From the NCBI GenBank assembly GCA_964017185.1, contig OZ024875.1:42439486-42503485 (forward strand): a DNA stretch of 64,000 nt, written 5' to 3'. This stretch comes from Rugalucina vietnamica. Taxonomy: Eukaryota; Mollusca; Bivalvia; Lucinida; Lucinidae. Made by a program: the position numbers and the translations under genes. The notes below the pieces were generated by a model. The model was not told the origin of the DNA. It did not search any database and worked only from the letters and a program-made list of their open reading frames with translations. Shown here in pieces: positions 19,703 to 52,391 of the stretch (position 1 is its first letter; each line of letters starts with the position of its first letter).

Positions 19703-19727
19703 CTGTAATGAAGTGGGCTGATACTTG
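19703..19727 (-). CDS. HUWE1: HUWE1 exon A, distal 25 nt (cut off by the foldback insertion)
   Basis: Read on the - strand this piece is the duplicated target caagtatcagc followed by 14 exon bases, then a donor (CAG|gtatat). Joined to the piece at 40,619-40,893 without the element and one duplication, it gives KYQPTSLQ and a 300-nt exon in phase 0/0. The human protein has KYQSNSIQ at this place (recollection). Confidence 0.88.
19717..19727. repeat. Target-site duplication, left copy (gctgatacttg)
   Basis: The 11-bp sequence is identical to 40,608-40,618. The two copies bracket the terminal inverted repeats directly, and the sequence is HUWE1 coding sequence (KYQ). Confidence 0.9.
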
Positions 19728-19858
19728 AATGAAATCAAGCTTTCTGACAATAACTTTCTGACAACAAGCTTTCTGACGATAACAATCAAGAGAGACAACT
19801 GCAACTGGCATATATACGACTGCTGTTATAAAACCCGGTATTACCGGTAATTAAGGCG
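19728..19858 (+). repeat. Left terminal inverted repeat of the foldback element
   Basis: It begins aatgaaatcaagctttctga and ends cccggtattaccggtaatta aggcg. About 95% of positions match the reverse complement of 40,481-40,607 by eye. The outer 55 bp contain three degenerate direct repeats of ctttctgac(a/g)a(t/c)aa, which could be transposase-binding sites. Confidence 0.92.
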
Positions 19859-19869
19859 AATGTTGTAAA

Positions 19870-20015
19870 AATGTACAAGTAGGCAATGATCAGGCAATGG
19901 CGCAATCAGAAAGAAACATATCGTAAGCCGAGTGAGCAGCTAGTCCCTAATAGGCGGCCACTTAGTTACCCGAACTGAACTAAAAATATGAAAATGTACA
20001 AACAGCACTGGTCAT
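19870..20015 (-). repeat. Fragment of interspersed repeat R inside the left end of the foldback element
   Basis: The reverse complement matches the repeats at 9.9 and 16.8 kb ('tttcatatttttagttcagt', 'ggccgcctattaggga', 'cgcattgcctgatcattgcc' approximately). The right arm has no such fragment: there the TIR joins the satellite directly. Confidence 0.75.
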
Positions 20016-23000
20016 TTTTAATGTCCAAATCTGACCTTATTAGGGAATGTGACACAAACTGTATACCATACATAGCTAGTGTATATACCTAGCAAACCAT
20101 TAACCACCAAATGATTTGGGGGAGTAAATTCTGACAGTATCAAACTGATTTGTGAAAATCACCAAAATTTATAAAATTAACATTTTTGCTGTAATGTGTG
20201 GTCATGTGCAATGTACAAATCTGACCTTAGTAGGGAATGTACAGCTGTATACAATTCCTAGCTAGGGTATATACTTGGCAAACCATTAACCACCAAAATG
20301 ATTTGGGGGAGTAGAGGCTGTCAGTATCAAGCCGATCTTTGAAAATTACTAAAAGTTACATATTTTGGTGTTGTCTGGTCATTTGCAATGTCCAAATCTG
20401 ACCTTACAAGGGAATGTGACACCAGCTGTATATCAGACTTAGGTAGGGTATATACATAACAAACCATTTACCATCAAATGATTTGGGGGAGTAGAGGCTG
20501 ATAGTATCAAACTGATCTTTGAAAATCACCAAAATATATAAAATTTACATGTACATATTTTGCTGTAAAGTATGGTCATACGCAATGTGTATATCTGACC
20601 TTATTAGGGAATGTGGCACCAGCTATATACCATACCTAGCTAGGCCATATACTTGACAAACCATTGACCACCAAATGATTTTGGGGATCAGAGGCTGACA
20701 GTATCAAACTGATCTTTGAAAATAACCAACATTCATGAAATTTACATATTTTGCTGTTATGTCTGGTCATTTGCAATGTCCAAATCTGACCTTACAAGGG
20801 AATGTGACACCAGCTGTACACCATACCTAGCAAAGGTATATACCTAGCAACCCATTACCCAGCAAATGGTTTGGGGGAGTAGAGGCTGACAGTATAAAAC
20901 TGATTTTTGAAAATGACCAAAATTTATAAAATTGGCTTATTTTGCTGTGAAGTCTTGTCATTTTCAATGGCCAATGGTGACATCATAAGGGAATGTGACA
21001 CAAGTTGTATACCATACCTAGGTATAACATATACCTAGCTAGCCATTAATTACCAAATGAGTTGGAAGAGTAGAGGCTGACAGTATCAAACTTTTATTTA
21101 CAAATCACCAAAATTTATGAAATTTAAATATTTGCTGTAAGGTCTTGTCATATGCAATGTCCAAATCTGATCATATTAGGGAATGTGACACCAGCTGTAT
21201 ACCATACCTAGCAAAGAAGTATACCTAGCAAACCATTAACCACCAAATGATTTGGGGGAGCAGAGGCTGACAGTATCAAACTGATCTTTGAAATGACCGA
21301 AATTTATTGACCTATTTTGCTGTAAAATCTGGTCATATGCAATGTAAAAATCTGACCTTATTAGGGGATGTGACATCAAATAAATACCATACCTAGCTAT
21401 GGCATATTACTAGCAAGCTATTTATCACCAAACTATTTGGGGGAAAAGAGGTTGACAGTATGATCTTTGAAAATGACCAAAACTTATGAAATTGATCAAT
21501 TTTGCTGTAGTATTGTCATGATCAATGTCCAATTCTGGCCTTATAGGGGAATGCGACACAAGCTGTATACCCATCCTAGCTAGGGTATGTACATAGCGCC
21601 TTATTAACCACTAAATGAATTGTATATGTGGGAGTAGAGGCTGACAGTATCAAACTGGTCTTTGAAAATGACCAAAATTTATAACATTGACCTATGTTGC
21701 TGTAAAGTCAGGTCATTTTCAATGTCCAGTGGTGATATCATAAGGGTATGTGACACCAGCCGTATATAATATCTAGCTAGGGTGTGTAAATAGCAAACCA
21801 TTAACCACCAAATAACTTGGGGGAGTAGAGACAGACAGTATCAAACTGGTCTTTGAAAATGACCAAAAATTTATAAAATTGACCTATCTTGCTGTAAAGT
21901 CAGGTCATTTTCAATGTACAATGGTGACATCATAAGGGAATGTGCCACAAGCTGTATACCATACCTAGCTAGGGTATATACCTAGCATACCATTAACCAC
22001 AAAATCACTTAGGGGTGAAGAGGCTGACAGTATCAAACTGATCTTTGAAAATGATCAAAATTTATGAAATTGACCTATTTTGTTGTTATGTCTGGTCACA
22101 TGCAATGTCCAAACCTGACCTTGTTAGGAAATATGGCACCAGCTGTATACAATACATAGCTATGGTATATACCTAGCAAACAATTACCACCAAACTATTT
22201 TTGAGAGTATAGGCTGACAATATGAAACTGGTCTTTGAAAATGACCAAAATTTATAAAACTGGCCTATTTTGCTATAAAGTCTGGTCATATACAATGTCT
22301 TAATCTGACCTTATTAGGGAATGTGACACCAGCTGTATATCATACCTAGATAACGTATATACCTAGCAAATCATTGACTATCAAGTGATTTGGGTGTCTA
22401 GAGGCTGATAGTATCCAACTTATCTTTGAATATTTATAAAATTGACCTATTTCGCTCTAAAGTCTGGTCATATTTAGTGTCCAATGGTGACATCATAAGG
22501 GAATGTGACACAATCTGTATACCGTACCTAGCTAGGGTATATACATAGCCAACCATTAACCACCAAATAACTTTGGGGAGTAGGGACTGACAGTATCAAA
22601 CTGACCTTGGGAAATGACAAAACATTATGAAATTGACCTATTTTGCTTTTATGTCTGGTCATATGCAATGTCCAAACCTGACCTTATTAGGGAATGTGAC
22701 GCCAGCTGTATACCATACATAGCTGGGGTATATACTGAGCAAAGCAATTACCACCAAAATATTTGGGGGAGTAGAGGCTGACAGTATTAATCTGGTCTTT
22801 GAAAATGACCAATATTTTTACAATTGACCTATTTTGCTGTAAAGTCTGGTCATATTCAATGTCCAAATCTGACCCTATTAGGGAATGTGACACCAGCTAT
22901 ATACCATACTTAGCTAGGGTAAATACTTAGCAAACATCAACATGAAATGATCTGGGGGCGTAGAGGCTGATAGTATCGAACTTATCTTTGAAAATTTATA

Positions 23001-26000
23001 AAATTGACCTATTTTGCTGTAATGTCTGGTCACATGCAATATCCAAACCTGACCTTACAAGGGAATGTGACATCAGCTATATACCATACCTAGCTAGGAT
23101 ATATACCTAGCAGACCATTTACTATCAAATGATTTGGAAGAGTAGAGGCTGGTAGTATCGAACGTATCTTTGAAAATGACCAAAAGTTATAAAATTGACT
23201 TATTTTGCTGCAATGTCTGGTTACATGCAATGCCCAAAACCTGTACTTATAAAGGATTGTGACACCAGCTGTATACCATACATAGACATGGTATATACCT
23301 AGCAAAACAATAACCACCAAACTATTTGGGTCAGTAGAGAATAACAGTAACAAATTGATCTTTGAAAATGACCAAAATTTATAAAATTGACCTATTTTGC
23401 TGCACAGTCTGGTCATTTTCAACGTCCAATTCTGACATCACAAGGGAATGTGACACCAGCTGTATACCATATCAAGCTAGCGTATATACCTAGTAAATCA
23501 CTAACCACCAAATGATTTGGGGGAGTAGAGGCTGATAGTATCGAACTTATCTTTGAAAATCACCAATAGTTATACAATTGACCTATTTTGCTATAAAGTC
23601 TGGTCATTTTCAATGTCCAATACTGACATCATAAGGGAATGTGACACCAGCTTTGAAAATATTTTGGTGTAAAGTCTGGTCATTTGCAATGCCCAAATCT
23701 GAGCTTACAAGGGAATGTGACACCAGCTGTATATCATACTTAGCTAGGGTATATACATATGCTGTATACCATACCTAGCTAGGGTATATACCTAGTAAAA
23801 CAATAACGACCAAATCATTTCGGGGAATAGAGACTGACAGTACTACACTGATCTTTAAAAATGACCAAAATATGTAAAATTTACATATTTTGCTGTTATA
23901 TCCGGCCATATTCAATGTACAAAAATGACCTTATCAGGGAATGTGACACCAGCTGTATACCATACCTAGCTATGTAATATATCTAGCAAACCATTATTTA
24001 CCAAATGATTTGGGGGAGAAGAGGCTGAAAGTATCAATCTGATCTTTGCAAATTACCAAACGTTATTTTCAATGACCAAATCTGATCCGACTATTTTGCT
24101 GTTAAGTCTGGCCATTTTCAATGTCCATTGGTGACATCATAAGGGAATGTGACACAAGCTGTATACCATACCTAGGCATGGTATATACCTAGCAAACCAT
24201 TAATCACCAAATGATTTGGAGGAGTAGAGGCTGGCAGTATCAAACTTGTGTTTAAAAATCACCAAATTTCATAGAATTTAACTGTTTTGCTGTAAGGTCT
24301 GGTCATATGCAATGTCCAAATCTGATCATATTAGGGAATGTGACACAAGCTGTATACCATACCTAGCAAAGGCGTATACATAGCAAACCATTAACCACCA
24401 AATGGTTTGGGGGAGTAGAGGTTGACAGTATCAAATTGATGTTTGAAATGACCAAAATTTATTGACCTATTTTGCTGTAAAATCTGGTCATATGCAATGT
24501 AAAAATCTGACCTTATTAGGGGATGTGACACCAACAATATACCATACCTAGCTATGACATATTACTAGCAAGCTATTAACCACCACACTAATTGGGGGAG
24601 TAGAGGCTGACAGTATGAAATTGATCTTTGAAAATGACCAAAACTTATGAAATTGACCGATTTTGCTGTAGTATGGTCATGATCAATGTCCAATGGTGAC
24701 ATTATAAGGGAATGAGACACCAGCTGCATACCACGCATAGCTAGGGTATATACCTAGCAAACCATTAACTACCAAATAACTTGGGGGAGTAGAGGCTGAC
24801 AGTATTAAACTAGTCTTTGAAAAAGACCAAAATTTATAAAATTGACTCATTTTGCTTAAAAGTCTGGTCATATGCAATGTCCAAATCTGACCTTATTAGG
24901 GAATGAGACACCAGCTATATACCATACCTAGCTAGGGTTTATCCATAGCAAAACATTAACAATCAAATGATTTGCGGGAGTAGAGGCTGATAGTATCGAA
25001 CTTATGTTTGAAAATTTATAAATTTGACCTATTTTGCTGGTCATTTTCAGTATCCAATGGTAACATCATATGGGTATGTGACACAATCTGTATACCATAC
25101 CTAGCTATGATATATCCCTAGCGAACCATTAACTACCAAATAACGTGGGGGAGTAGAGGCTGATAGTATCAAACTGATCTTTGAAAATGATCAACATTTA
25201 TGAAATTGATCTATTTTGCTGTTATGTCTGGTCACAAGCAATGTCTAAATTCTGATCTTATTACCGAATGTGACACCAGCCGTATACCATACATAGCTAG
25301 GGTATATAACTAGCAAAACAATTGCCACCAAACTATTTTGAGGAGTAGAGGCTGACAATATGAAACTGGTCTTTGAAAATGACCAAAATTTATAAAATTG
25401 ACTGACCAAAATTTATGAAATTGACCTATTTTGCTGTTAAGTCTGGTCATATGCAATGTCCAAATCTGACCTTATTAGGGAATGTGACACTAGCTGTATT
25501 CCACACTTAGGGTATATACATAGCAAAACATTAGACATCAAGAGGAATTGGAAGACTAGAGGCTGATAGTATCGAACTTATCTTTGAAAATTTATAAAAT
25601 TGACCTTCTGGTAACATGCAATGTCCAAACCTGTCCTTACAAGTGAATGTGAATACCATACCTTGCTAGGTTAATACTTAGCAGAACATTTACCATCAAA
25701 TGATTTGGGGGAGTAGAGGCTGATAGTATTGAATGTATCTAGGAAAATGACCAAAAGAAATAAAATTGACTTATTTTGCTGTAATGTCTGCTTACATGCA
25801 ATGTCCAAACCTGACCTTATTAGGGAATGTGACACCAGGGTATATACCTAGCAAAACAATAACCACCAAATCATTTTGGCTAGTAGAGACTGACAGTATC
25901 AAACTGATTTTTGATACTGACCAGCATTTATAAAATTGTCTGGTCATTTTCAATGTCCAATTCTGACATCATATGGGAATGTGACACCAGCTGTATACCA

Positions 26001-26537
26001 TACCTAAGTTGGGTATATAGCTAGTAAACCAATAACCACCAAATGATATGGTGAGTAGAGGCTGATAGTATCGAACTTATCTTTGAAAATCACCAATATT
26101 TATACAATTGACCTATTTTTCTATAAAGTCTGGTCATTTTCAATGTCCAATACTGACATCATAAGGGAATGTGACACCAACTGTATACCATACCTAGCTA
26201 GGGTATATACATAGCAAAACAATATCGACCAAATTATTTGGGGGAGTAGAGACTGACAGTATCAAAATCATCTTTAAAAATTACCAAAATTCATAAAATT
26301 GACCTATTTTGCTGTTATTTCTGGTCATATGCAATGTCCAAACCTGACCTTATTAGAGAATGTGACACCAGCTGTATACCATACCTTGCTAGGATATATA
26401 CCTAGCAAACCAAAAACTACCAAATAATTTGGGGGAGTAGAGGCTGATAGTATCGCACTTATCTTTGAAAATCACCAATATTTATACAATTGACCTATTT
26501 TGCAATAAACTGTGATCATTTGCAATGTCCAAATCTG
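20016..26537 (+). repeat. Satellite array, left arm (~188-bp monomer, ~35 copies)
   Basis: Successive copies of the landmark gggaatgtgacaccagctgt start at about 20.05, 20.42, 20.61, 20.80, 20.99, 21.18, 21.36, 21.55, 21.74 and 21.93 kb and continue regularly. The period is 180-197 bp, about 188 on average. Each monomer carries an imperfect dyad around 'ataccatacctagctagggt', the block 'gggggagtagaggctgacag' and the block cctattttgctgtaaagtc. Monomers diverge by roughly 10-20%, with a few shortened units (for example near 23.65 and 25.85 kb). Short open frames here are not genes. Confidence 0.93.
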
Positions 26538-26556
26538 ACATTGCACGTGACCAGAC
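26520..26556. repeat. Inversion hinge of the satellite palindrome
   Basis: The forward monomer reads ...catttgcaat, then a 13-bp spacer (gtccaaatctgac), then 'attgcacgtgaccagac', which is the same monomer segment in reverse. Monomers are + to the left and - to the right without exception, as far as I followed them. Confidence 0.88.
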
Positions 26557-29500
26557 ATTACAGCAAAGAAAGTCAATTTTATAAAGTTTGGTCATTTTCA
26601 AAGATACGTTCGATACTGTCAGCCCCATACTCCCCCAATTCATTTGATGGTTAATGGTTTGCTAGGTATATACCCAAGCTAGGTATGGTATACAGCTGGT
26701 GTCACACTCCCTTGTAAGGTCAGATTTGGACATGGAAAATGATCAGTCGTTACAGCAAAATAGGTCAATTGTATAAATATTGGTGATTTTCAAAGATAAG
26801 TTTGATACTATCAGCCTCTACTCCCTAAAATCGGTCGATGGTTAATGGTTTGCTAGGTATATACCCTAACTAGGTATGGTATACTACTGGTGTCACATTC
26901 CCTTGTGATGTCAGAATGGGACGTTGAAAATGACCAGATTGTACAGCAAAATAGGTAAATTTTATAAATTGTGGTCATTTTCAAAGATCAGTTTGTTACT
27001 GTTATTCTCTACTCCCCCAAATAGTTTGGTGGTTATTGTTTTGCCCTGTCTATGTATGGTATACAGCTGGTGTCACAATCCTTTATAAGTACAGGTTTGG
27101 GCATTGTATGTAACCAGACATTGCAGCAAAATAAGTCAATTTTATAACTTTTGGTCATGTGATCAAGATCCCGATACTGACAGCCTCTGCTCCCCCAAGT
27201 TATTTGGTGGTTAATGTTTTGCTAGGTATATACCCAAGCTAGGTATGGTATAAAGCAGGTGTCACATTCCCTAGTAAGGTCAGGTTTGGACATTGCATGT
27301 GACAAGTCATAACAGCAAAATAAGCCAATTTTATAAATTTTGGTCATTTTCTAAGATCAGTTTGGTACTGTCAGCCACTACTTCCCCAAATAATTTGGTG
27401 GCTATTGTTTTGCTAGGTTATTGCCTAGCTAGGTATGGTATACAGCTGGTGTCACATTCCCTAATAAGGTCAGGTTTGGACATTGCATATGACAAGTCAT
27501 CAGCAAAACAGGTCAATCTAATAAATTTTTGTCTTTTTCAAAGGTCAGTTTGAAACTCTCAGTCTCTACTCCCCCAAATCAGTCGATGGATAATGGTTTG
27601 CTAGGCATATATCCTAGCTAGGTATAGTATACTGCTGGTGTAGCATCCCCTAATAAGGTAAGGTTTGGACATTGCATGTTACAAAACAACAGCAAAATAG
27701 GTCAATTTTATAAATTTTGGTCATTTTCAAAGATCAATTTGATACTGTCAGCCTCTGCTCCTTCAAGTTATTTGGTGACTAATGTTTGCTAGGTATATAC
27801 CCTAGCTAGGTATGGTATACAGCTGGTGTCACAATCCCTAATAAGGTCAGGTTTGGACATTGCATATGACAAGTCATAACAGCAAAATAGGTCAATTTAA
27901 TAATTTTTTGTCTTTTTCAAAGATCAGTTTGAAACTGACAGTCTCTACTCCCCCAAAATCAGTCGATGGTAAATGGTTTGCTAGGTACATACCCTAACTA
28001 AGTTTGGTATACTGTTGGTGTCACATCCCCTAATAAGGTCAGGTTTGGACATTGCATGTGACCAGACATTACAGCAAAATAGGTCAATTTTATAAATTTT
28101 AGTCATTTTCAAAGACCAGTTTCATATTGTCAGCCTCTACACCCCCAAATCATTTGATGGTTTGCTAGGTATATACCCTAGCTAGGTTTGGTATACTGTT
28201 GGTGTCACATCCCCTAATCAGGTAAGGTTTGGAGTTTGCATGTTACACAACAACAGCAAAATAGGTCAATTTTATAAATTTTCGTCACTTTCAAAGATCA
28301 ATTTGATACTGTCAGCCTCTGCTCCCCCAAGTTATTTGGTCGTTAATGGTTTGCTAGTTACATATACCATAGCTAGGTATGGTATGCAGCTGGTGAGACA
28401 TTCCCTAGTAAGGTCAGGTTTGGACATTGCATGTGACAAGTCATAACTGCAAAATAAGCAAATTTAATAAATTTTGGTCATTTTCAAAAATCAGTTTGGT
28501 ACTGTAAGCCTCTACTTTCCCAAATAATGTGGTGGCTATTGGTTTGCTAGGTTATACCCTAGCTAGGTCTGGTATACTGCTGGTGTCACATTCCCTAATA
28601 AGGTCAGGTTGTGACATTACATATGACTAGTCATAACAGCAAAATAGGTCAATCTAATAACTTTTTGTCTTTTTCAAAGGTCAGTATGAAACTGTCAGTC
28701 TCAACTCCCCCAAATCAGTCGATGGTTAATTGTTTGCTAGGTATATACCCTAGCTAGGTATGGTATATTGTTGTTGTCACATCCCCTAATATGGTCAGGT
28801 TCGGACATTGCATGTGACCAGACATTACAGCAAAATAGGTCATTTTTATCAATTTTAGTCATTTTCGAAGACAAGTTTCATATTGTCAGCCTCTACTCCC
28901 CCAAATCATTTGATGGTATATAGCTGGTGTCACATTTCCTTATAAGGTCAGATTTGGACATTGCATATGACAAGACTGTATAGCAAAATAAGTCAATTTT
29001 AAACATTTTGGCCATTTTCAAAGACCAGTTTGATACTGTCAGCCTTAACTCCCCCAAGTTATTTGGTGGTAAATGATTTGCTAGGTATATACCCTAGCTA
29101 TGTATGGTATATAGCTGTTGTCACATACCGTAATAAGGTCGGATTTGGACATTGCATATGACAAGACTTTACAGCAAAATAGGTCAATTTTATAAATTTT
29201 GGTCATTTTCAAAGACTGAATTCATACTATCAGCCTCTGTCCCCCCAAATCATTTGGTGGTTAATGGTTTGTTAGGTTTATACACTATGTAGGTATGGCA
29301 TACAGCTTGTGTCACATTCCCTTATGATGTCAGAATTGGACATTGAAAATGACCAGACTCTATAGCAAAATAAGTCAATTTTATAAATTTTGGCAATTTT
29401 CAAAGACCAGTTTGATGTTGTCAGCCTTTACTCCCCCAAGTTATTTGGTGGTTAATGGTTTGCTTAGTATATACCCTACCTAGGTATGGTATCAAGCTGG

Positions 29501-32439
29501 TGTCACATTCCCTTACGGTGTCAGCATTAGACATTGAAAATGATCAGACTTTACAGCATGATAGGTCAATTTTATAAATGCTGGTCATCTTCAAACACGA
29601 GTCTCTACTCCCCCAATTAGTTTGGTGGTAATTGTTTTGTTATGTATATACCCTAGCTATGTATGATATAATGCTGGTGTCACATTCCATGATAAAGTCA
29701 GGTTTGGACATTGAATTTGACCAGACATTACAGCAAAATTGGTCAATTTTATAAATTTTGGTCATTTTCAAAGACCAGTTTCATACTGTCCGCCTCTACT
29801 CTTCCAATGAGTTTGGTAGTAATTGTTTTGCTAGGTATATAGCCTAACTATGTATCGTATACAGCTGGTGTCACATTCCCCTCTAAGGTCAGGTTTGGAC
29901 ATTGTGACTAGACATAAAAGCAAATAGGTCAATTTTATAAATTTTGGTCATGTGATCAAGATCCCGATACTGTCAGCCTCTACTCCCCCAAATTGGTGGT
30001 TAATGATTTGCTAGATATATACCCTAGCTAGGTCTGGTATATAGCTGGTGTCACATTCCCTTAAGGTCAGGTTTGGACATTGCATGGGACCAGACATAAC
30101 AGCAAAATATGTCAATTTTATACATTTTGGTCGTTTTCAAAGATCGGTTTGATACTGTCAGCCTCTATTCCCCCAAGTTATTTGGTAGTTGTTTTGCTAG
30201 GTATATACCCTCGCTATGTATCGTATACAGCTGGTGTCACATTCCCTAATAAGGTCAGCTTTGGACATTGCATGTGACCATAACAGCAAAATATGTCAAT
30301 TTTATAAATTTTGGTCATTTTTAACGATCAGTTTGATACTGTCAGCCTCTACTCCCCCAAATTATTTGGTGGTTAATGGTTTGCTAGGTATATACCCTAG
30401 CTAGGTATAGTATACAGCTTGTGTCACAACCCCTAATGATGTATGGTATAAAGCTGGTTTCACATGTCCTAATAAGAACAGGTTTGGACATTGCATGAGA
30501 CCAGACATAACAGCAAAATATGTCAATTTTATAACTTTGGTCATTTTCAAAGATCAGTTTGATACTGTCAGCCTTTACTACCCCAAGTTATTTGGTCGTT
30601 AATGATTTGCTCAGTATAGCCCCTAGCTAGGTATGGTATATAGCTGGTGTCACATTCTCTTATGATGTCAGAATTGGACATTGAAAATGACCAGACTGTA
30701 TAGCAAAAGAGCTCAATTTTATAAATTTTGACCATTTTTAAAGACCAGTTTAAAACTGTCAGCCTCTACTACCCCAAGTAATTTAGTGGTTATTGTTTTG
30801 CTACGTATATACCCTTGCTATGTAGCATATACAACTGGTGTCACATTACCTAATAAGGTCAGGTTCGGACATTGCATGTGACAAGACATAACAGCAAATA
30901 GGTCAATTTTATAAATTTTGGTCATTTTCAAAGATCAGTTTTATACTGTCAGCCTCTACTTCCCCAAGTCATCAGGTGGTTAATGATCTGCTAGGTATAC
31001 ACCCTAGCTAGGTATGGTATATAGCTGGTGTCACATTCCCTTATGATGTCAGAATCGGACATTGAAAATGACCAGACTGTATAGCAAAAGAGGTCACTTT
31101 TATCAATTTTAGTCATGTATATACCTTAGTTAGGTATGGTATATATCTGGTCTAGTTTAGTTAGGTATGGTATATATCTGGTGTCACATTGCCTAATAAG
31201 GTCAGATTAGGACATTGCGTATGACCAGACTTTACAACAAATTGGTCAATTTTATAAATGTTGGTTATTTTGAAACAATCGTTTCATACTATCAGCCTCT
31301 ACTCCCCCAAATCGTTTGATAATTAATTGTTTGCTAGATATATACCCTAGCTAGGTATGATATAAAGCTGGTGCCACATTCCCTAATAAGGGCAGGTTTG
31401 GACATTGCATGTGACCAGACATAACTGCAAAATATGTCAATTTTATAAGTTTGGTCATTTTGAAAGATCGGTTTGATACTGTCAGACTCTACTCCCCCAT
31501 ATCATTTGGAGGTTAATGCTTGCTAGGTATATACCATAGCTAGGTATGGTATACAATTGGTGTCACATTCCCTAATAAGGCGAGATTTTGACATTAAAAA
31601 TGACCAGACTTTACAGCAAAATAGGTCAATTTTATAAAATTTGGTCATTTTCAAAGATCAGTTTGATACTATCAGTCACTACTCCCCCAAGTTATTTGGT
31701 GGTTAATGATTTGCTAAATATACCCCATAGCTAGGTATGGTATATAGCTGGTGTCACATTCCCTTATGATGTCAGAATTGGACACTGAAAATGAGAAGAT
31801 CGTATAGCAAAAGAGGTCAATTTTATAAATTTTGGCCATTTTCAAAGACCAGTTTGAAACTGTCAGCCTCTGCTCCCCCAAGTTATTTGGTGGTTAATGG
31901 TTTGCTAGGTATATACCCTAGCTAGGCATGGTATACAATTGGTGTCACATTCCCTAAAAAGATGAGATTTTGACATTTAAAATGACCAGACTTTACAGCA
32001 AAATAGGTGAATTTTATAAATTTTGATCATTTTCAAAGATCGGTTTGATACTCTCAGACTCTATTCCCCCAAATCATTTGGGGGTTAATGGTTTGCTAGG
32101 TATATACCCTAGCCTCTACTCCCCCAGGTTTTTTGGTGGTTAATGATTTGCTAAATATACCCCCTAGCTAGGTGTGGTATATAGCTGGTGTGACATTCCC
32201 TTATGATGTCAGAATTGGACATTGAAAATGACCAGATAGTATAGCAAAAGAAGTCAATTTTATAAATTTTGGCCATTTTCAAAGACCAGTTTGAAACTGC
32301 CAGCCTCTACTCCCCCAAGTTATTTGGTGGTTATTGTTTTGCTAGGTATATACCCTCGCTATGTATCGTATACAGCTGGTGTCATATTCCCTAATAAGGT
32401 CAGGTTTGAACATTGCATGTGACCAGATATAGCAACATA

Positions 32440-32679
32440 TATACTGAGAGGAACTAGAAACTTAAGTTTCAAACTTCCCATAGTTTGGTGGTTGGGCTCC
32501 GTAAAATCGATATTAGAACTCTGGTAATTTCTTTCCTGCATTACAAAGATTAGTCACAGCAGAATCGCCTTCAGACGGCCAGTCAGACGATTACTGGAGG
32601 GTTCAAATCGATTCTTACGGGGTTCCAACCCAAAGTATAAGAATTAAAAAAACTTAAGTTTCTAGTTCCTCTCAGTATA
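32440..32679. mobile_element. MITE inserted in the satellite (ctgagaggaactag TIR)
   Basis: The termini ctgagaggaactagaaactt and aagtttctagttcctctcag are perfect inverted repeats of at least 25 bp, flanked on both sides by tata. The body has no coding capacity and no satellite similarity. A paralogous satellite unit at 35,153-35,210 keeps the uninterrupted sequence gcaacatataggttcatgtg, giving a related empty site and a TATA (or TA) duplication. Tc1/mariner-like mobilisation is possible from the TA-type target. Confidence 0.88.
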
Positions 32680-33609
32680 GGTGCATGTGACCAGGTATAG
32701 CAACAAATAGGTCAATTTTATAAAGTTTGGCCATTTTCAAAGACCAGTTTGAAACTGCCAGCCTCTACTCCCCCAAGCTATTTGGTGGTTATTGTTGTGC
32801 TAGGTATATACACTCACTATGTATTGTATACAGCTGGTGTCACATTCCCTAATAAGGTCAGGTTTGGACATTGCATGTGACCCAAAACAGCAAATAGGTC
32901 AGTTTTATACATTTTGGTCATTTTCAAAGATAAGTTTGATGTTGTCAGCCTCTACTCCCCCAAATTATTTGGTGGTTAATGGTTTGCTAGGTATATACCC
33001 TAGCTATGTATGGTATACAGCTGGTGTCACATTTCCTTGTAAGGTCAGGTTTTGACATTGCATCTGACAAGTCATAACAGCAAAACAGGCCAATTTTATA
33101 AATGTTGGCCATCTTCAAAGACCAGTATGAAACTGTCAGCCTCTACTCCACTAAATTATTTGGTGGTAATTGTTTTGCTAGGTATATACCTTAGCTAGGT
33201 ATGGTATATATCTGGTGTCACATTGCCTAATAAGGTCAGATTAGGACATTGCGTATGACCAGACTTTACAACAAAATAGGTCAATTTTATAAATGTTGGT
33301 CATTTTGAAACAACCGTTTCATACTATCAGCCTCTACTCCCCCAAATCGTTTGATAATTAATTGTTTGCTAGATATATACCCTAGCTAGGTATGATATAA
33401 AGCTGGTACCACATTCTCTAATTAGGGCATTGCATGTGACCAGACATAACAGCAAAATATGTCAATTTTATAAGTTTGGTCATTTTCAAAGATCGGTTTG
33501 ATACTGTCAGACTCTACTCCCCCAAATCATTTGGTGGTTAATGGTTTGCTAGGTATATACCCTAGCTAGGTATGGTATACAATTGGTGTCACATTCCCTA
33601 ATAAGGCGA

Positions 33610-34380
33610 GATTTTGACATCAAAAATGACCAGACTGTACAGCAAAATAGGTCAATTTTATAAATTTTGGTCATTTTCAAAGATCAGTTTGATACTATCA
33701 ATCTCTACTCCCCCAAGTTATTTGGTGGTTAATGATTTGCTAAATATACCCCCTAGCAAGGTGTGGTATATAGCTGGTGTCACATACCCTTATGATGTCA
33801 GAATTGGACACTGAAAATGAGAAGATCGTATAGCAAAAGAGGTCAATTTTATAAATTTTGGCCATTTTCAAAGATCAGTTTGAAACTGTCAGCCTCTGTT
33901 CCCCCAAGTTATTTGGTGGTTAATGGTTTGCTAGGTATATACCCTAGCTAGGCATGGTATACAATTGGTGTCACATTCCCTAATAAGATGAGATTTTGTC
34001 ATTAAAAATGACCAGACTTTACAGCAAAATAGGTCAATTTTATAAATTTTGGTCATTTTCAAAGATCAGTTTGATACTATCAATCTCTACTCCCCCAAGT
34101 TATTTGGTGGTTAATGATTTGCTAAATATACCCCCTAGCAAGGTGTGGTATATAGCTGGTGTCACATACCCTTATGATGTCAGAATTGGACACTGAAAAT
34201 GAGAAGATCGTATAGCAAAAGAGGTCAATTTTATAAATTTTGGCCATTTTCAAAGATCAGTTTGAAACTGTCAGCCTCTGTTCCCCCAAGTTATTTGGTG
34301 GTTAATGGTTTGCTAGGTATATACCCTAGCTAGGCATGGTATACAATTGGTGTCACATTCCCTAATAAGATGAGATTTTG
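33610..34380 (-). repeat. Recent 382-bp dimer duplication within the satellite
   Basis: The segment starting at 33,614 recurs at 33,996 with almost no differences over two monomers. Neighbouring monomers differ by 10% or more, so this dimer was duplicated recently. Confidence 0.82.
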
Positions 34381-35296
34381 TCATTAAAAATGACCAGACT
34401 TTACAGTAAAATAGGTCAATTTTATAAATTTTGGTCATTTTCAAAGATCAGTTTGATACTGTCAGTCTCTATTCCCCCAAATCATTTGGGGGTTAATGGT
34501 TTGCTAGGTATATACCCTAGCTAGGCATGGTATACAATTGGTGTAACATTCCCTAATAAGATGAGATTTTGACATTAAAAATGACCAGACTTTACAGCAA
34601 AATAGGTGAATTTTATACATTTTGGTTATTTTCAAAGATCGGTTTGATACTGTCAGTCTCTATTCCCCCAAATCATTTGGGGGTTAATGGTTTGTTAGGT
34701 ATATACCCTATCTAGGCATGGTATACAATTGGTGTCACATTCCCTAATAAGGTCAGATTTGGACATTAAAATGACCACACTTTACAGCAAAATAGGTCAA
34801 TTTTATAAATTTTGGTCATTTTCAAAGATCAGTTTGATACTGTCAGCCTCTACTCCCCCAAGTTATTTGGTGGTTAATGATTTACTAAATATACCCCCTA
34901 GCTAGGTGTTTTATATAGCTGGTGTCACATTCCCTTATGATGTCAGAATTGGACATTGAAAATGACCAGATGGTATAGCAAAAGAAGTCAATTTTATAAA
35001 TTTTGGCCATTTTCAAAGATCAGTTTGAAACTGCCAGCCTCTACTCCTCCAAGTTATTTGGTGGTTATTTTTTGCTAGGTATATACCCTCGCTATGTATC
35101 GTATACAGCTGGTGTCACATTCCCTAATAAGGTCAGGTTCGGACATTGCATGTGACCAGATATAGCAACATATAGGTTCATGTGACCAGGTTTAGCAACA
35201 AATAGGTCAATTTTATAAATTTTGTTTATTTTCAAAGATCAGTTTGATGCTGTCAGCCTCTACTCCCCCAAGTTATTTGGTGGTTAATGGTTTGCT

Positions 35297-35306
35297 AGGT
35301 ATATAC
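35297..35306. repeat. Target-site duplication of the nested LINE, left copy (aggtatatac)
   Basis: A ten-base satellite sequence repeated at 36,961-36,970. Between the two copies the sequence is entirely non-satellite. Confidence 0.8.
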
Positions 35307-36960
35307 AAGGTATATATAAGTATAGGTATATATAAGGATGCATCCATAATCCACCTATACAAGCGGAAAGGAAATCCTCAAGTATGTGACAATCACAGAG
35401 GCATCTCCCTCCTATCAATTGCTGGGAAGATACTTGCAAAAATTCTGTTGAATCGTCTGAATGCTCATCTTGATCAGACGGGACTTATCCCTGAAAGTCA
35501 ATGTGGATTCAGAAAAGACAGAGGGACAATAGACATGATCTTCACAGCAAGACAGCTTCAGGAGAAATGCCAAGAACAGAATGTAGATCTATACATGACG
35601 TTTGTTGACCTCACCAAAGCTTTTGACACTGTTAGTCGTGATGGACTCTGGAAAATCATGGCCAAGTTTGGCTGTCCACCCAGATTCATAGCTATGGTGC
35701 GGCAGTTTCATGATGGCATGCAGGCACGTGTACAGAATGATGGAGAGTTCTCTTAACCATTTGAAGTAACAAATGGGGTCAAACAAGGCTGTGTTCTGGC
35801 ACCAACACTGTTCAGCATGATGTTTTCTGCCATGCTTATGGATGCTTTTCAGGACAGTGACACTGGTTTTCCAATCAGGTACCGTTTTGATGGCAACATA
35901 TTCAACCTCAGAAGGTTGCAAGCCAAAACTAAGGTCCAGACTGATGTGCTAGATGAGCTCCTCTATGCAGATGATATGGATAAGAATGCCAACACAGAGG
36001 CAAAAATGCAAAGAGCCATGGATCAAGTCTCACAGTCATGTGATAACTATGATCTCACAATCAGCACAAAAAAGACAGAGGTTGTACACCAACCAGCCCC
36101 CGGAAAACCATAAAATGAACCAATCATCACTGTGAATGGGCAAAAACTGAAAGTTGTTGACAAGTTCACTTACCTGGGAAGCACTCTCTCCAGAGCAGTG
36201 CATATTGATGATGAGATCACTGCCAGAATTGCAAAAGCTAGTGTGGCATTCGGAAGACTCCGTGCAAATGTCTGGGAGCGAAATGGAATCAAGCTTGACA
36301 CCAAGCTGAAAGTCTACAAGGCTGTGGTACCGCCAACCCTCTTGTATGCATGTGAGACCTGGACAGTATACCAACGCCATGCAAAGAGACTTAACCATTT
36401 CCACTTAAGCTGTTTGAGAAAGTTGTTAAAAATCAAGTGGCAGGACAAGATTCCAGACACAGAGGTCCTGAGGAAAGCAGGGATGCAAAGCATGCATACA
36501 GTCTTAAAGCTAGCACAGCTAAGATGGACTGGCCATGTTATAAGAATGCCTGATGCGCGACTTCCAAAGAAAGTTTTCTATGGAGAACTACAGGAGGGAA
36601 AGCGCTCTCAAGGTGGCCAGAAGAAACGCTACAAAGACACCCTCAAAGCCTCTCTGAAGGATTTCGAAATACCAATGGGGTCCTGGGAACACAGGAGCGA
36701 TCAAAGTGGCGAGGTCTCATCAACAAAGGAGCAGCTCTCTATGAAAAGAAGAGAATCTGTGAAGCTGAAAGAAAGCGAAGAGAGCGCAAAGCCAAAACAA
36801 ATGTGCCACCAGCAGACTCTATGACATTGACTTGCTCTACTTGCAACCGACAGTTTAGAGCCAGAATTGGCCTAGTCAGCCATCAAAGAACTCACCAACA
36901 CACATCAGCACTATTCAAGAAATAATGATGGTCTTTCTCATTAGTGAGAGACGAACTATC
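35307..36960 (+). mobile_element. 5'-truncated LINE with C2H2 finger, nested in the satellite
   Basis: One main frame encodes reverse transcriptase: NHRGISLLSIAGKILAKILL, FVDLTKAFDTVSRDGLWK, NGVKQGCVLAPTLFS and LLYADDMDK, then a C-terminal domain (FTYLGSTLSRAVHIDDEI, RWTGHVIRMPD). Two nonsense codons interrupt it, at 35,754 and 36,111. An 8-bp deletion near 36,690, relative to the copy at 43.2 kb, shifts the frame. The C2H2 finger (C-x2-C ... H-x3-H, CSTCNRQFRARIGLVSHQRT) lies at 36,833-36,905. No endonuclease domain, so 5'-truncated and dead. The domain order suggests an RTE/I-group LINE of invertebrates; clade uncertain. Confidence 0.88.
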
Positions 36961-36970
36961 AGGTATATAC
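36961..36970. repeat. Target-site duplication of the nested LINE, right copy
   Basis: Identical to 35,297-35,306; the satellite monomer resumes here in frame with its interrupted left part. Confidence 0.8.
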
Positions 36971-39900
36971 CCTAGCTATGTATGGTATACATCTGGTGTC
37001 ACATTTCCTTGTAAGGTCAGATTTTGACATTGCATGAGACAAGTCATATCAGCAAAATAGGCCAATTTTATAAATTTTGGCCATTTTCAAAGACCAGTTT
37101 GAAACTGTCAGCCTCTACCCCACGTTATGTGGTGGTTTTTGTTTTGCTAAGTATATATCCTCGCTATGTATCGTATACAGCTGGTGTTACATTCCCTAAT
37201 AAGGTCAGGTTTGGACATTGCATGGGACCAGACATAACAGCAAAAAGGTCAATTTTATAAATTTTGGTCCTTTTCAAAGATCAGTTTGATACTGTCAGCC
37301 TCTTCTCCCCCAAGTTATTTGGTGGTTATTGTTTTGCTAGGTATATACCCTCGCTATGTATCGTATACAGCTGGTGTCACATTCCCTAATAAGGTCAGGT
37401 TTGAACATTGCATGTGACCAGATATAGCAACAAATAGGTGCATGTGACCAGATATAGCAACAAATAGGTCAATTTTATAAATTTTGTTTATTTTCAAAGA
37501 TCAGTTTGATGCTGTCAGCCTCTACTCCCCCATTCCCCAAGTTATTGGTGGTTAATGGTTTGCTAGGTATATACCCTCGCTATGTATTGTATACAGCTGG
37601 TGTCAAATTCCCTAATAAAGTCAGGTTTGGACATTGCATGTGACCAGACATAACAGCAAATAGGTCAATTTTATACATTTTGGTCATTTTCACAGATCAG
37701 TTTGATACTGTCAGCCTCTATACCCCCAAGTTATTTGGTGGTTATTTGTTTGCTTAGTATATACCGTAGGTAGTAATGGTATATATCTGGTGTCACATTG
37801 CCTTATAAGGTCAGATTAGGACGTTGCATATGACCAGACTTTACAACAAAATGGGTCAATTTCATAAATTTTGGTCATTTTGAAACACCCGTTTCATACT
37901 GTCAGCCTCTACTCCCCCAAATCGTTTGATAGTTGATAGTTAGTTAGGTATACCCTAGCTAGGTATGGTATAAAGCTGGTGTCACATTCCCTACTAAGGG
38001 CAGGTTTGGACATTGTATGTGACCAGACATAACAGCAAAATATATCAATTTTATACATTTTGGTCATTTTCAAAGATCGGCTTGATACTGCCAGACTCTA
38101 CTCCCCCAAATCTTTTGTTGTTAATTCTTTGCTAGGTATATACCCTAGCTAGGTATGGTATTTTTCTGGTGTCACATTGCCTAATTAGGTCAGATTAGGA
38201 CATTGCATATGACCAGACTTTACAACAAAATAGGACAATTTTATAAATTTTGGTCATATTGAAACAACCGTTTTATACTGTCAGCCTCCACTCCCCCAAA
38301 TCATTTGATAATTAATGGTTTGCTAGACATATACCCTAGCTAGGTATGATATAAGCTGGTGTCACATTCCCTAATAAGGGCAGGTTTGGACATTGCATGT
38401 GACCAGACATAACAGCAAAATATGTCAATTTTATAAGTTTGGTCATCTTCAAAGATAAATCATTTGGTGGTTAATGGTTTGCTAGGTATATACCCTAGCT
38501 AGGCATGGTATACAATTGGTGTCACATTCCCTAAGAAAGTGAGATTTTGACATTAAAAATGACCAGACTTTACAGCAAAATAGGTCAATTTTATAAATTT
38601 TGGTCATTTTCAAAGATCAGTTTGATATTGTCAGCCTCTACTCCCCCAGGTTATTTGGTGGTTAATGATTTGCTAAATATACCCTCTAGCTAGGTGTGGT
38701 ATATAGCTGGTGTCACATTCCCTTATGATGTCAGAATTGGACATTGAAAATGACCAGATCGTATATAGCAAAAGAGGTCAATTTTATAAATTTTGGCCAC
38801 TTTCAAAGACCAGTTTGAAACTGTCAGCCTCTGCTCCCCCAAGTTATTTGGTAGTAAATGGTTTGCTAGGTATATACCCTAGCTAGGCATGGTATACAAT
38901 TGGTGTCACATTCCCTAATAAGGTCAGATTTGGACATTAAAATGACCAGACTTTACAGCAAAATAGGTCAATTTTATAAATTTTGGTCATTTTCAAAGAT
39001 CGGTTTGATACTGTCAGACTCCATTCCCCCAAATCATTTGGTGGTTAATGGTTTGCTAGGTATATACCCTAGCTAAGCTTGGTATACAATTGGTGTCACA
39101 TTCCCTAATAAGGTCAGATCTGGACATTAAAAATGACCAGACTTTACAGCAAAATAGGTCAATTTTATAAATTTTGGTCATTTTCAAAGATCAGTTTGAT
39201 ACTGTCAGCCTCTACTCCCCCAAGTTATTTGGTGGTTAATGATTTGCTAAATATACCCCCTAGCTAGGTGTGGTATATAGCTGGTGTCACATTCCCTTAT
39301 GATGTCAGAATTGGACATTGAAAATGACCAGATTATATAGCAAAAGAGGTCAATTTTATAAATTTTGGCCATTTTCAAAGACCAGTTTGAAACTGTCAGC
39401 CTCTGCTCCCCCAAGTTATTTGGTAGTTAATGGTTTGCTAGGTATATACCCTAGCTATGTATGGTATACAGCTGGTGTCACATTCCCTTGTAAGGTCAGG
39501 TTTGGACATTGCATGTGGCAAGTCATAACAGCAAAACAGGCCAATTTTATAAATTTTGTTCAATTTTAAAGATGAGTTTGGTACTGTCAGTCTCTACTTT
39601 CCCAAATAATTTGGTGGCTGTTGTTTTGCTAGGTATATACTCTGGCTGGGTATGGTATACAGCTGGTGTCACATTCCCTAATAAAATCAGGTTTGGATAG
39701 TATATATGACAGACATTACAGCAAAATATGTCAATTTTATAAATTTTGGTCATTTTCAAAGATAAGTTCGATACTATCAGCCTGTACTCCCCCAAATCAT
39801 TTGGTGATTAATGGTTTGCTAGATGTATATCCAAGGTAGGTATGGTATATATCTGGTGTCACATTGCCTAATAAGGTCAGATTAGGACATTGCATATGAC

Positions 39901-40480
39901 CAGACTTTACAACAAAATATGTCAATTTTAAAATTGTTGGTTATTTTGAAACACCCATTTCATACTGTCAGCCTCTACTCCCCCAAATCGTTTGATGATT
40001 AATGGTTTGCTAGGTATATGCCCTAGCTAGGTATGGTATAAAGCTGGTGTCACATTACCTAATAAGGTCAAGTTTGGACATTGCATGTGACCAGACATAA
40101 CAGCAAAATATGTCAACTTTATAAGTTTGGTCATTGTCAAAGATCGGTTTGATACTGTCAGACTCTACTCCCATAATTCATACGGTGGTTAATGGTTTGC
40201 TAGTTATATACACTAGCTAGGTATGGTATACAATTGATGTCACATTCCCTAATAAGGTCAGATTTGGCATTAAAATGACCAGACTTTACAGCAAAATATG
40301 TCAATTTTATAAATTGTGATGATTTTCAAAGATCAGTTTGATACTGTCAGTATCTACTCCCCCAAATCATTTGGTGGTTAATGGTTTGCTAGGTATATAC
40401 CTTAGCTAGGTATGGTATACTGTTTGTGTCACATTCCCTAATAAGGCCAGATTCGGGCAGTGCATACAGCAAAATAGGTC

Positions 40481-40607
40481 GCCGTATTTACCGGTAATAC
40501 CGGGTTTTATAACAGCAGTGGTATATATGCCAGTTGCAGTTGTCTCTCTTGAATGTTATCGTCAGAAAGCTTGTTGTCAGAAGTTATTGTCAGAAAGCTT
40601 GATTTTA
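40481..40607 (-). repeat. Right terminal inverted repeat of the foldback element
   Basis: Reverse complement of the left TIR, including the inner 'taccggtaataccggg' palindrome and the outer ctttctgac repeats. Its outermost bases differ (taaaatcaag here against aatgaaatcaag), so the exact termini are uncertain by two or three bases. Confidence 0.92.
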
Positions 40608-40618
40608 GCTGATACTTG
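40608..40618. repeat. Target-site duplication, right copy (gctgatacttg)
   Basis: Identical to 19,717-19,727. It lies inside HUWE1 coding sequence; on the - strand it reads K-Y-Q. Confidence 0.9.
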
Positions 40619-40893
40619 TGGTACTCCGTATTGGCCTTGAGATCGTCAATGTCAATCGTCGGCAAGCCTGATATCAACAATTCAAGCTCCTGCTCGTTGA
40701 AGATCGAGATAAGTTTCTTTGGCACAATATCATAGAATCCCTCGAGGAAAGCGGTGAGCTGCTGCCTTATGGCACCCGTCATTTTCATCTGGCAGACTAG
40801 TTTGACATACTCGTATTTTGTTTCTTCTGTAACCAAGGTATTTCTGCCATCTGGTTTCAAGTCTCGGATTGAGTTTACACCAAATTCCTGTAT
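40608..40893 (-). CDS. HUWE1: HUWE1 exon A, proximal part (HECT N-lobe end), interrupted
   Basis: The acceptor is ttattgacag|ATACAG. The frame reads [18 protein letters not shown], then [33 protein letters not shown] and ANTEYHKYQ. These are diagnostic HECT-family blocks (LISG and the NTEYHKYQ hinge). At KYQ the coding sequence runs into the foldback TIR. Ribosomes reading on would meet TIR-derived residues (LKSSFLTIT) and soon stop. With the 25-nt piece at 19,703 the original exon is 300 nt, phase 0 at both ends. Confidence 0.93.
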
Positions 40894-41239
40894 CTGTCAA
40901 TAAGGAAAATACTACTGTTGGCCTACGTAAAACAGAATTTTTGTAAATGAAGAAGACAAATTATCTAGAATGAATACTAAAAATTATTTAGGAAGATTTT
41001 TATGAATAAACAATGAGAGCTCCAAAGCCATTACTATTATGACATGAACACAAAAGAAAAACTTGAAATAATTTTGATGGTGCAGTTCCAGGTGTTCAAG
41101 ATTTTTATGTTGGATAATATTGGATACAAGGCTGGTTTACAAGGCAAGCGGCTTTACCAAAACTCTTAAGAGATGTGTAACACCGACTGTGGAAAACAAG
41201 AGGTTTTATTCCATGCTTTCCAGGCTCTAGGACTCTTAC

Positions 41240-41345
41240 CTCAGTACTAAAAGTGAGATCATATCCGAGATCCTTGATATTACTCTCTAACAAGAACTCT
41301 AGACCCTGGTAGAACGAGTAGTCTTCACTCTCCATGTCTATATGC
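41240..41345 (-). CDS. HUWE1: HUWE1 exon B (HECT N-lobe)
   Basis: A 106-nt exon with acceptor cttgcag|G and donor GAG|gtaaga. It encodes [19 protein letters not shown] and [10 protein letters not shown], closely matching HUWE1 'DMESEDYHFYQGL' and '[10 protein letters not shown]'. Phases 2 in, 0 out, matching its neighbours. Confidence 0.93.
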
Positions 41346-41619
41346 CTGCAAGATTTGTAGAGTTAATGTGTTCATAAAACTACCTCAGTACACATTTATT
41401 GTACTAAAGCAGTCATACATTTAATGTAAATAGTGTTTGGCTTATTATTTGCTTTGTTTGGGCTCTCCTTAACAGTAAACAGCTATGGTCATGTTAGATG
41501 ATCAGACATCCAAGAGGCAGTTTACCAATACTTCGTGCAGATTGCTTTCACCACTAACTGACAACTGCTCTTCTTGAATCAGCAGAGGAGGACTTCACAA
41601 CCCAATTTTCATGAAAAAA

Positions 41620-41700
41620 AAATGTGCTGGGCATGAAGATAGATCACAGGACTGCTTCAATACAGACATGCTACCAACTGAGCTATCACACCCAGTTTCA
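41620..41700 (-). mobile_element. tRNA-derived SINE fragment in HUWE1 intron
   Basis: On the - strand the D-arm sequence TAGCTCAGTTGGTAGCATG is an excellent Pol III box A. It is preceded by gggtgtga, as in a tRNA acceptor stem, and followed by an anticodon-arm-like 'tctgtattgaagca'. Box B is degenerate. An intact tRNA gene is unlikely because the T-arm does not pair. Confidence 0.6.
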
Positions 41701-41879
41701 ACCAGGTACGGTATCTTATCATTTGCTGCACATATCAAGCAAAACTAACTTTGTATGTCTATGTCTATGATAAGCATGGTTATGATGGATGATTGGTCTG
41801 ACAACGTATGTAAAATTTACCATTTCAAAGGTAAGGGCTTTATAAGAAATTCTTAGTTTTATTTCAATTTAGAACTTAC

Positions 41880-42150: not shown

Positions 42151-42194
42151 CTGTCGAATTAGGGAAATTTAAATCCTATCTTCATTTAAATAGC

Positions 42195-45418: not shown

Positions 45419-45449
45419 CTGTGGAATAAACATGTGATAAAAGCGTGAT

Positions 45450-45600: not shown

Positions 45601-45670
45601 GCGTATAGGACATTTACCATTTTCCAAAAAAACATGTTCATTACTATTTGAAACATTACTACATAAAAGC

Positions 45671-49645: not shown

Positions 49646-49649
49646 GATG

Positions 49650-52390: not shown

Positions 52391-52391
52391 T

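What the first reader, a model, noticed from the sequence alone, without database searches (positions are those of the whole stretch)
19717..40618. A 20.9-kb foldback transposon with satellite interior is inserted inside a HUWE1 coding exon
Seen: matching ~130-bp inverted ends, an 11-bp direct repeat (gctgatacttg) on both sides, and HUWE1 coding sequence interrupted at KYQ on the right flank. Its missing end (PTSLQ plus a gt donor) lies on the left flank. Removing the element and one repeat gives exactly 300 nt, phase 0/0, and the expected HUWE1 sequence. This gives insertion site, polarity and element limits in one stroke. Foldback elements are known, but one of this size, built from a ~188-bp satellite and lodged in an essential-gene exon, looks undescribed.
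Basis: partly seen in the sequence, partly recalled or inferred. Interest (0 to 1): 0.95.

Follow-up and report, generated by a model that had tools for sequence, protein, structure and literature searches.

The report
Giant satellite-filled palindromic jumping genes
A 20.9-kb palindromic transposon built mostly of satellite DNA sits in an exon of a broken spare copy of the HUWE1 gene in a likely bivalve genome, and eight further copies with matching ends, seven of them also 15-25 kb, suggest that such satellite arrays probably jump as whole units far larger than DNA transposons are thought to move easily.

Summary
The element is real and belongs to a genome-wide family; the "essential gene" part is wrong. 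The insert is window 19728-40609 (20,882 bp): unequal ends (left AATG, right TAGC), ~130-bp inverted repeats, two opposed arms of a 191-bp satellite (36 + 66 monomers), a nested LINE and MITE. The target duplication is 9 bp (TGATACTTG), not 11. The host assembly (1.09 Gb) holds 29 matches to the end. Of nine copies with both ends read, eight are 15.2-25.0 kb and one 2.4 kb; seven have exact 9-bp duplications, one 8 of 9, one 7 bp. Two copies on different contigs are 99.1% identical over 17.4 kb of aligned sequence (3.2 kb of gaps), so the large unit itself reached new sites. In the seven copies compared, the terminal 133 bp are better conserved than the sequence just inside. The exon is HUWE1 coding sequence; its 300-nt empty site is confirmed by an intact copy 46 kb away and by a database protein reading through. 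But it lies in a tandem duplicate without HUWE1's 5' end, last two exons and another exon's donor, beside an apparently complete HUWE1. Best reading: a non-autonomous Mutator/Foldback-type family, likely mobilised in trans; no transposase was found.

The parts
19719..19727 (.). left copy of 9-bp target duplication TGATACTTG
19728..40609 (+). whole element, 20,882 bp
   Evidence: end motifs shared by 9 copies
19728..19860 (+). left terminal inverted repeat (L-type end, begins AATG), with ~14-bp internal direct repeats
19861..20006 (+). left spacer, not satellite; shorter than in six other large copies (about 270-305 bp), absent in C13; resembles repeats at window 9956-10157 and 16875-17072
20007..26544 (-). 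left satellite arm, 191-bp monomers (36)
26570..40468 (+). right satellite arm, 191-bp monomers (66), opposite orientation, with internal block duplications
32440..32681 (.). nested MITE, ~30-bp inverted ends, TA flanks; array paralogue without it at 35146-35215
35308..36950 (+). nested 5'-truncated LINE with reverse transcriptase, in three open stretches split by two stops
   Evidence: RVT_1
40479..40609 (-). right terminal inverted repeat (R-type end, ...TTTTAGC)
40610..40618 (.). right copy of 9-bp target duplication TGATACTTG
40610..40893 (-). 5' part (284 nt) of the interrupted HUWE1-duplicate exon (called exon 4 here)
   Evidence: PDB HUWE1 E 1.7e-47; HECT PF00632
19703..19718 (-). 3' part (16 nt) of the same exon, followed by gt donor
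41234..42967 (-). three further HUWE1-duplicate exons (about 42967-42686, 42151-41879, 41350-41234), canonical splice sites
44609..53879 (-). upstream exons of the HUWE1 duplicate
46850..48655 (-). LINE (RVT_1) at a place where 93 bp, including the 3' end and donor of another exon of the duplicate, are missing
2556..5504 (+). 983-aa gene, part of the same tandem duplication (second copy at about C7:42506978-42509920)

Best explanation
This is one copy of a family of giant foldback DNA transposons, two opposed arms of a 191-bp satellite between ~130-bp terminal repeats, that likely moves by cut-and-paste with a Mutator-type transposase supplied in trans and leaves 9-bp target duplications. Shown: shared ends, 9-bp duplications, 15-25 kb size in eight of nine copies, and near-identity of whole 19-kb units at two sites. 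Inferred: superfamily, trans-supplied enzyme, cut-and-paste, and array growth by unequal exchange. In the window it landed in exon 4 of a partial tandem duplicate of HUWE1; reading into the element would add 33 residues before a stop, but this fragment was probably already dead or dispensable because it lacks the gene's start and its last two exons and an apparently complete HUWE1 is next to it.
For: 29 end matches in the assembly; 9 copies read at both ends, 7 of 9 with exact 9-bp duplications, C13 8 of 9, C5 7 bp. Same layout in the eight large copies: left arm 22-40, right arm 37-82 monomers. C3b vs C5 99.08% over 17,402 aligned positions (3,216 gap columns); C2 vs C4 97.6% over 15,589 (3,906); C3a vs C3b 97.5% over 14,095 (5,971). 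L-ends identical (0/133) in six copies and 2/133 from the window's; R-ends differ by 0-3/131 among these seven; L and R differ by 8-9/133 inside each of the seven, so the two ends travel together as distinct types. Between the two groups of copies the terminal 133 bp differ by 0-1.8%, the adjoining left spacer by 4.6-8.3%. Intact 300-nt exon, 291/300 identical, at C7:42526.5k; the duplicate has no recognisable exons 5-6 and no 5' end. P0146 reads through the insertion site.
Against: No transposase found in any copy; 59 Mutator-type (PF10551) matches in the genome, none within about 600 kb of an end match (the two lists compared by eye), so enzyme and superfamily are unproven. The window copy's interior is only about 76-95% like the others, so its own transfer as a full 20.9-kb unit is inferred from the family. 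BLAST chaining of the same three pairs, not forced to be collinear, gave lower identities (96.3, 93.1, 96.1%). C13 and C11b ends are more diverged or rearranged. Two of nine copies lack a perfect duplication. No reads could be checked.
Confidence: 0.85

Rival explanations
1. A short foldback element inserted and its satellite array grew in place to 20 kb.
For: A 2.4-kb copy with 12 monomers exists at C11; the window array has block duplications, with two pairs of monomers at 1.00 identity to two decimals; array length varies between near-identical copies.
Against: C3b and C5, on different contigs with different flanks, are 99.08% identical over 17.4 kb of aligned sequence including both arms. 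Monomers in the window array differ by about 20% on average while the duplication and the exon pieces are intact.
Confidence: 0.1
2. The insertion knocks out the functional HUWE1 gene.
For: Coding sequence is cut with a target duplication; exons of this copy are open, and 66 synonymous against 5 nonsynonymous differences from the intact copy show that it was long under constraint.
Against: Intact exons 4, 5, 6 at C7:42517621-42526753 and the only matches to the 5' end at C7:42606625-42619128; the interrupted copy has no recognisable exons 5-6 and another exon lost its donor at a LINE.
Confidence: 0.03
3. The element is spliced out as a new intron and the duplicate still makes protein.
For: The left end is open in frame towards the exon end and has in-frame AGs.
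Against: Before the stop at 40507-40509 the best GT in or near the junction is CAA|GTATCA, -2.7 bits against 2.25 to 6.08 for the four real donors (weights recalled); the better-scoring donors lie after the stop; exons 5-6 are missing.
Confidence: 0.03
4. Assembly artefact or haplotype mis-join.
For: Inverted repeats are hard to assemble; a read-through protein for the site exists in another record (P0146).
Against: Nine copies with the same end motifs and mostly exact site-specific duplications; no N in the window; arms differ by about 20%, unlike palindrome artefacts; duplicate and intact exons differ at 16% of synonymous sites, too much for alleles in my judgement.
Confidence: 0.05
5. Copies spread by segmental duplication or recombination, not transposition.
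For: C12 shows two left ends with near-identical flanks about 14 kb apart.
Against: Flanks of the nine counted copies differ and carry their own duplications.
Confidence: 0.03

Closest known systems
Tetris (Drosophila virilis foldback; PMC4079207)
   Same: Outer flanking domain, then ~220-bp tandem repeats in inverted arms, no apparent coding capacity, 8-10 bp duplications; arrays that behave as satellite DNA, up to 66 copies; fibre-FISH showed long arrays flanked by two outer domains.
   Different: Tetris TIRs are given as up to 1,735 bp, and its authors suggest that larger arrays may have disrupted transposition. Here six of eight 15-25 kb copies with 72-104 monomers carry exact 9-bp duplications.
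Tm1 Mutator/Foldback elements (root-knot nematodes; PMC3169594)
   Same: 9-bp duplications, ~14-bp direct repeats in the TIR, unequal terminal motifs at the two ends, TIRs of one element 93% alike on average (here 93-94% in seven copies).
   Different: Tm1 has a transposase-coding member (Phantom-like); no 191-bp satellite arms in what I read; sequence homology not tested.
Muta1 (Aedes aegypti MULE; PMC5225508)
   Same: Long TIR with 12-bp subterminal repeats, 8-9 bp duplications, derivatives with foreign interiors.
   Different: 3.2 kb with a transposase.
Galileo (P superfamily, foldback-like; PMC3573991)
   Same: Long, internally repetitive TIRs.
   Different: 7-bp duplications; TIRs at most about 1.26 kb in D. 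mojavensis.
Satellite-bearing Helentrons of oysters (PMC7492417, seen in search listing only)
   Same: Mobile elements dispersing satellite-like repeats in a bivalve.
   Different: Helentrons, as named in the listing; from recall such rolling-circle elements make no target duplication or inverted arms.

Membership tests
Foldback (FB) elements | long inverted arms made of tandem repeats | tested here: met
   8 of 9 copies; (the 2.4-kb copy has one arm only)
Foldback (FB) elements | target duplication of 8-10 bp | tested here: met
   7 of 9 exact 9 bp, the others 8/9 and 7 bp
Mutator-like (MULE) superfamily | TIR over 100 bp and 8-10 bp duplication | tested here: met
   criteria from passages of PMC5225508
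Mutator-like (MULE) superfamily | a Mutator-type transposase encoded by a member with these ends | tested here: not met
   59 PF10551 matches, none within about 600 kb of an end match (lower bound); gap ORFs in other copies were listed only, Pfam was run only on ORFs of the window copy. So filed as Mutator/Foldback-type by structure, not as a proven MULE
Tm1 family | unequal terminal motifs outside the inverted repeat | tested here: met
   left AATG, right TAGC in 9 of 9
Tm1 family | sequence homology of the ends | not tested
   no eukaryotic repeat library held
P superfamily (Galileo) | 7-8 bp duplication | tested here: not met
   9 bp in 7 of 9
Functional HUWE1 gene | complete HECT end with catalytic Cys exon | tested here: not met
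   no exons 5-6 for the window copy

The most novel reading that the evidence does not exclude
A long inverted satellite array is itself the mobile unit: the family keeps ~14-20 kb of opposed satellite arms and transposes them whole, dispersing satellite DNA through the chromosomes and overturning the idea that large arrays end a foldback element's mobility; the palindrome may even take part in the transposition reaction.
Probability: 0.4. Interest if true: 0.82.

Novelty: new variant of a known kind. Interest (0 to 1): 0.6.

Why it matters
Foldback elements and their link to satellite DNA are known, but the literature read here puts DNA-transposon efficiency falling above about 6 kb of cargo, artificial constructs apart (PMC6431247, section 5 read), and suggests that large arrays may stop foldback transposition (PMC4079207). 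A family with eight 15-25 kb copies, six of them with exact site-specific 9-bp duplications and seven with near-identical ends, gives a natural counter-case. It offers a route for spreading satellite arrays, and sits as a marker in a broken gene duplicate. Seven literature searches listed no such giant satellite foldback family; most subscription papers are not held.

Tried and rejected
Rejected: 11-bp duplication (other copies fix the ends). Dating the insertion by left/right TIR divergence (the same 8-9/133 difference is in seven of nine elements, so it predates insertion). Exact splicing of the element. Transposase inside the copies (within the limits stated). Exons 5-6 hidden in the left flank: none by protein or DNA comparison. 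First count of coding differences had one segment in the wrong frame (48.8 kb); it was redone with nine segments, 594 codons. Two ways of comparing array copies disagree in size: BLAST chains 96.3, 93.1, 96.1%, global alignment 99.1, 97.6, 97.5% for C3b-C5, C2-C4, C3a-C3b; the longest single BLAST piece of C3b-C5 is 10.8 kb at 99.06%. I use the global figures and give both. Rfam: nothing at gathering thresholds. Whole-genome distribution of the satellite monomer could not be tested: the same request did not complete eight times.

Rows dropped: of 29 end matches, 18 form the nine copies counted. Three lie in a 37-kb rearranged C12 locus not counted (its duplication untested), and eight are unpaired: C2:12401624 and C6:57832308 have satellite beside them, the other six were not examined. 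C13 and C11b were left out, which compared seven copies.
Full report
What is in the window. The insert runs from 19728 to 40609 (20,882 bp). Its two ends are inverted copies, 123 of 128 positions identical, with ~14-bp internal direct repeats. Inside are two arms of a 191-bp satellite in opposite orientation: 36 monomers on the minus strand and 66 on the plus strand, meeting near 26.55 kb. Mean identity between monomers is about 80-82% (97 monomers above 100 bits), while two pairs in the right arm are at 1.00, so the array turns over. Nested in the right arm are a LINE fragment with reverse transcriptase and a MITE with TA flanks; a paralogous stretch of the array lacks the MITE.

The site. 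Removing the insert and one repeat gives a 300-nt open exon in phase 0/0 ending KYQPTSLQ|GT. The first 96 residues of the open frame match solved HUWE1 structures at E 1.7e-47. Of the 120 relatives listed, two (P0003, P0042) carry exactly KYQPTSLQ|IQWFW, and several records read Q|V... into an intron at the same place, so the exon end is right. At near-invariant HECT columns the window copy departs at 4 of 121, each a conservative change, against 0-3 in 12 relatives, which neither shows nor excludes slight relaxation.

The family. The window's own assembly (1.09 Gb, 47 contigs) holds 29 matches to the 133-bp end. Eighteen of them form nine elements whose both ends I read. Lengths are 24,973 (C11a), 20,882 (window), 20,245 (C13), 19,456 (C4), 19,031 (C5), 18,989 (C3b), 15,628 (C2), 15,172 (C3a) and 2,441 (C11b). 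All nine begin AATG and end TAGC. Seven of nine have an exact 9-bp target duplication, C13 has 8 of 9 and C5 has 7 bp. The eight large copies share a left arm of 22-40 monomers and a right arm of 37-82; the right arm is the longer one in seven, in C13 they are 40 and 37. C11b has 12 monomers in one orientation only.

The large unit moves. By global alignment C3b and C5 are 99.08% identical over 17,402 aligned positions (3,216 gap columns), on different contigs with different flanks; C2-C4 and C3a-C3b are 97.6% and 97.5% over 15.6 and 14.1 kb. BLAST chains not forced to be collinear gave 96.3, 93.1 and 96.1% for the same pairs, with one 10.8-kb piece of C3b-C5 at 99.06%. Left ends are identical in six copies and differ by 2 of 133 from the window's; right ends differ by 0-3 of 131 among these seven; but left and right differ by 8-9 of 133 inside each of the seven. 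C13 is more diverged (left 11-13/135, right 5-7/131), and C11b's left end matches over its first 104 bp only. The two ends are therefore distinct types that travel together. Between the two groups of copies the outer 133 bp differ by 0% (left) or 1.7-1.8% (right), whereas the left spacer just inside, which is not satellite, differs by 4.6-8.3%; the window copy differs from the six by 0-2.7% in the outer left 133 bp and 9.9-12.4% in the aligned part of the spacer. I read this as constraint on the ends for recognition by a transposase (inference); gene conversion of ends is not excluded.

What moves it. No transposase was found in the copies: one search lists ORFs in the non-satellite gaps of C11a, C13, C3a, C4 and C12 (up to 294 aa, one of them a reverse-transcriptase-like reading in C12, by eye), without a family scan; the whole-genome search for the Mutator domain PF10551 gave 59 matches, none within about 600 kb of an end match (a lower bound, lists compared by eye). 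Structure (TIR over 100 bp, subterminal direct repeats, 9-bp duplication, unequal terminal motifs) matches Mutator/Foldback elements such as Tm1 (abstract, section 9 and passages of PMC3169594) and Muta1 (passages of PMC5225508). So I call it Mutator/Foldback-type and non-autonomous; the enzyme is inferred.

The gene. HUWE1 exon 4 occurs twice on C7. The copy at C7:42526.5k is 291/300 identical to the empty site, uninterrupted, and is followed by exons 5 and 6, with the Cys codon split between them. Of 17 matches no second exon 5 or 6 of like identity appears. Three exons matching the recalled human N-terminus were found once each, at C7:42606625-42619128. The window copy belongs to a tandem duplication that also holds a 983-aa gene (window 2556-5504 and about C7:42506978-42509920, 95.5% identical). 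Within the 30 kb of the intact gene examined, its HUWE1 part matches about 12 kb; it has no recognisable exons 5-6 or intron 4 (homology stops at window 14471 and resumes at the exon), and another exon lacks its end and donor where a LINE sits. So the transposon sits in a partial, broken duplicate. Reading into the element adds 33 residues and then a stop at 40507-40509.

Timing and polymorphism. Over nine coding segments (594 codons) the duplicate differs from the intact copy at 66 synonymous and 5 nonsynonymous positions (pS 0.165, pN 0.0036). It was thus under constraint for most of its history although it now lacks both gene ends; why is unexplained (a fuller paralogue that recently lost its ends, or a piece of a diverged lineage). 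Database protein P0148 matches the intact exon with its own intron read-through, and P0121, on a contig of the same length, is 100% identical to the second 983-aa copy over 975 residues, so at least one record comes from the same or a very close species. P0146, from a different contig, reads PTSLQVCIIY, one residue from the window's left-flank intron reading VYIIY: the duplicate's exon without the insertion. The insertion is therefore probably polymorphic or recent.

Host. Named relatives of the 983-aa gene are from Mercenaria, Ruditapes and Mya, with one gastropod (Biomphalaria) as the weakest of 24 hits; hence likely a bivalve. The species was not identified.

Known kinds. Tetris is the closest described element: tandem ~220-bp repeats in its inverted arms, 8-10 bp duplications, TIRs up to 1,735 bp, arrays of up to 66 copies, long arrays flanked by two outer domains seen by fibre-FISH, and a suggestion by its authors that larger arrays may have disrupted transposition (abstract, first part, passages and section 19 of PMC4079207 read). 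Galileo TIRs reach about 1.26 kb with 7-bp duplications (passages of PMC3573991). A review gives falling efficiency above 6 kb for DNA transposition, while noting 100-200 kb cargoes in artificial constructs and 16-20 kb CACTA families in a red alga (section 5 of PMC6431247). The present arms are several- to tenfold longer than the Tetris TIRs, and exact duplications flank six of eight large copies. Searches listed nothing like it; the library misses most subscription papers.

Limits. No reads, no RNA, no second genome at DNA level, no eukaryotic repeat library; the genome-wide satellite map was not obtained because the search did not complete. Mussels show massive hemizygous presence-absence variation (passages of PMC7653742), a plausible setting for such polymorphic insertions.

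Noticed in passing
window 40610-53879 vs C7:42526468-42538635: The partial HUWE1 duplicate shows 66 synonymous against 5 nonsynonymous differences (pS 0.165, pN 0.0036) although it now lacks both gene ends; unexplained.
   Followed up: partly
window 46850-48655: A LINE sits in another exon of the HUWE1 duplicate where 93 bp, including the splice donor, are missing.
   Followed up: partly
window 2556-5504 and about C7:42506978-42509920: 983-aa gene in one open frame (precomputed Pfam PF28478 on its relatives) duplicated in tandem with the HUWE1 piece; relatives named in clams.
   Followed up: partly
window 19700-19703: Homology between duplicate and intact HUWE1 stops within 3 bp after the exon-4 donor, as if a deletion or breakpoint fell exactly at the splice site.
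   Followed up: no
window 43194-44024: Second copy of the nested LINE (93.6% over 833 bp) in an intron of the HUWE1 duplicate.
   Followed up: no
window 7464-7977: G-rich 20-bp minisatellite (GGGGACCCGGGTGGGGGACT) with strong GC skew.
   Followed up: no
window 50377-63998: Dense run of tandem arrays (periods 457, 167, 191, 128, 180, 161, 70 bp); the 167-bp array at 52920-53421 has three copies at 100% match.
   Followed up: no
G000:C12:47337206-47388181: Rearranged or old member with three ends, two left ends having near-identical flanks about 14 kb apart.
   Followed up: partly
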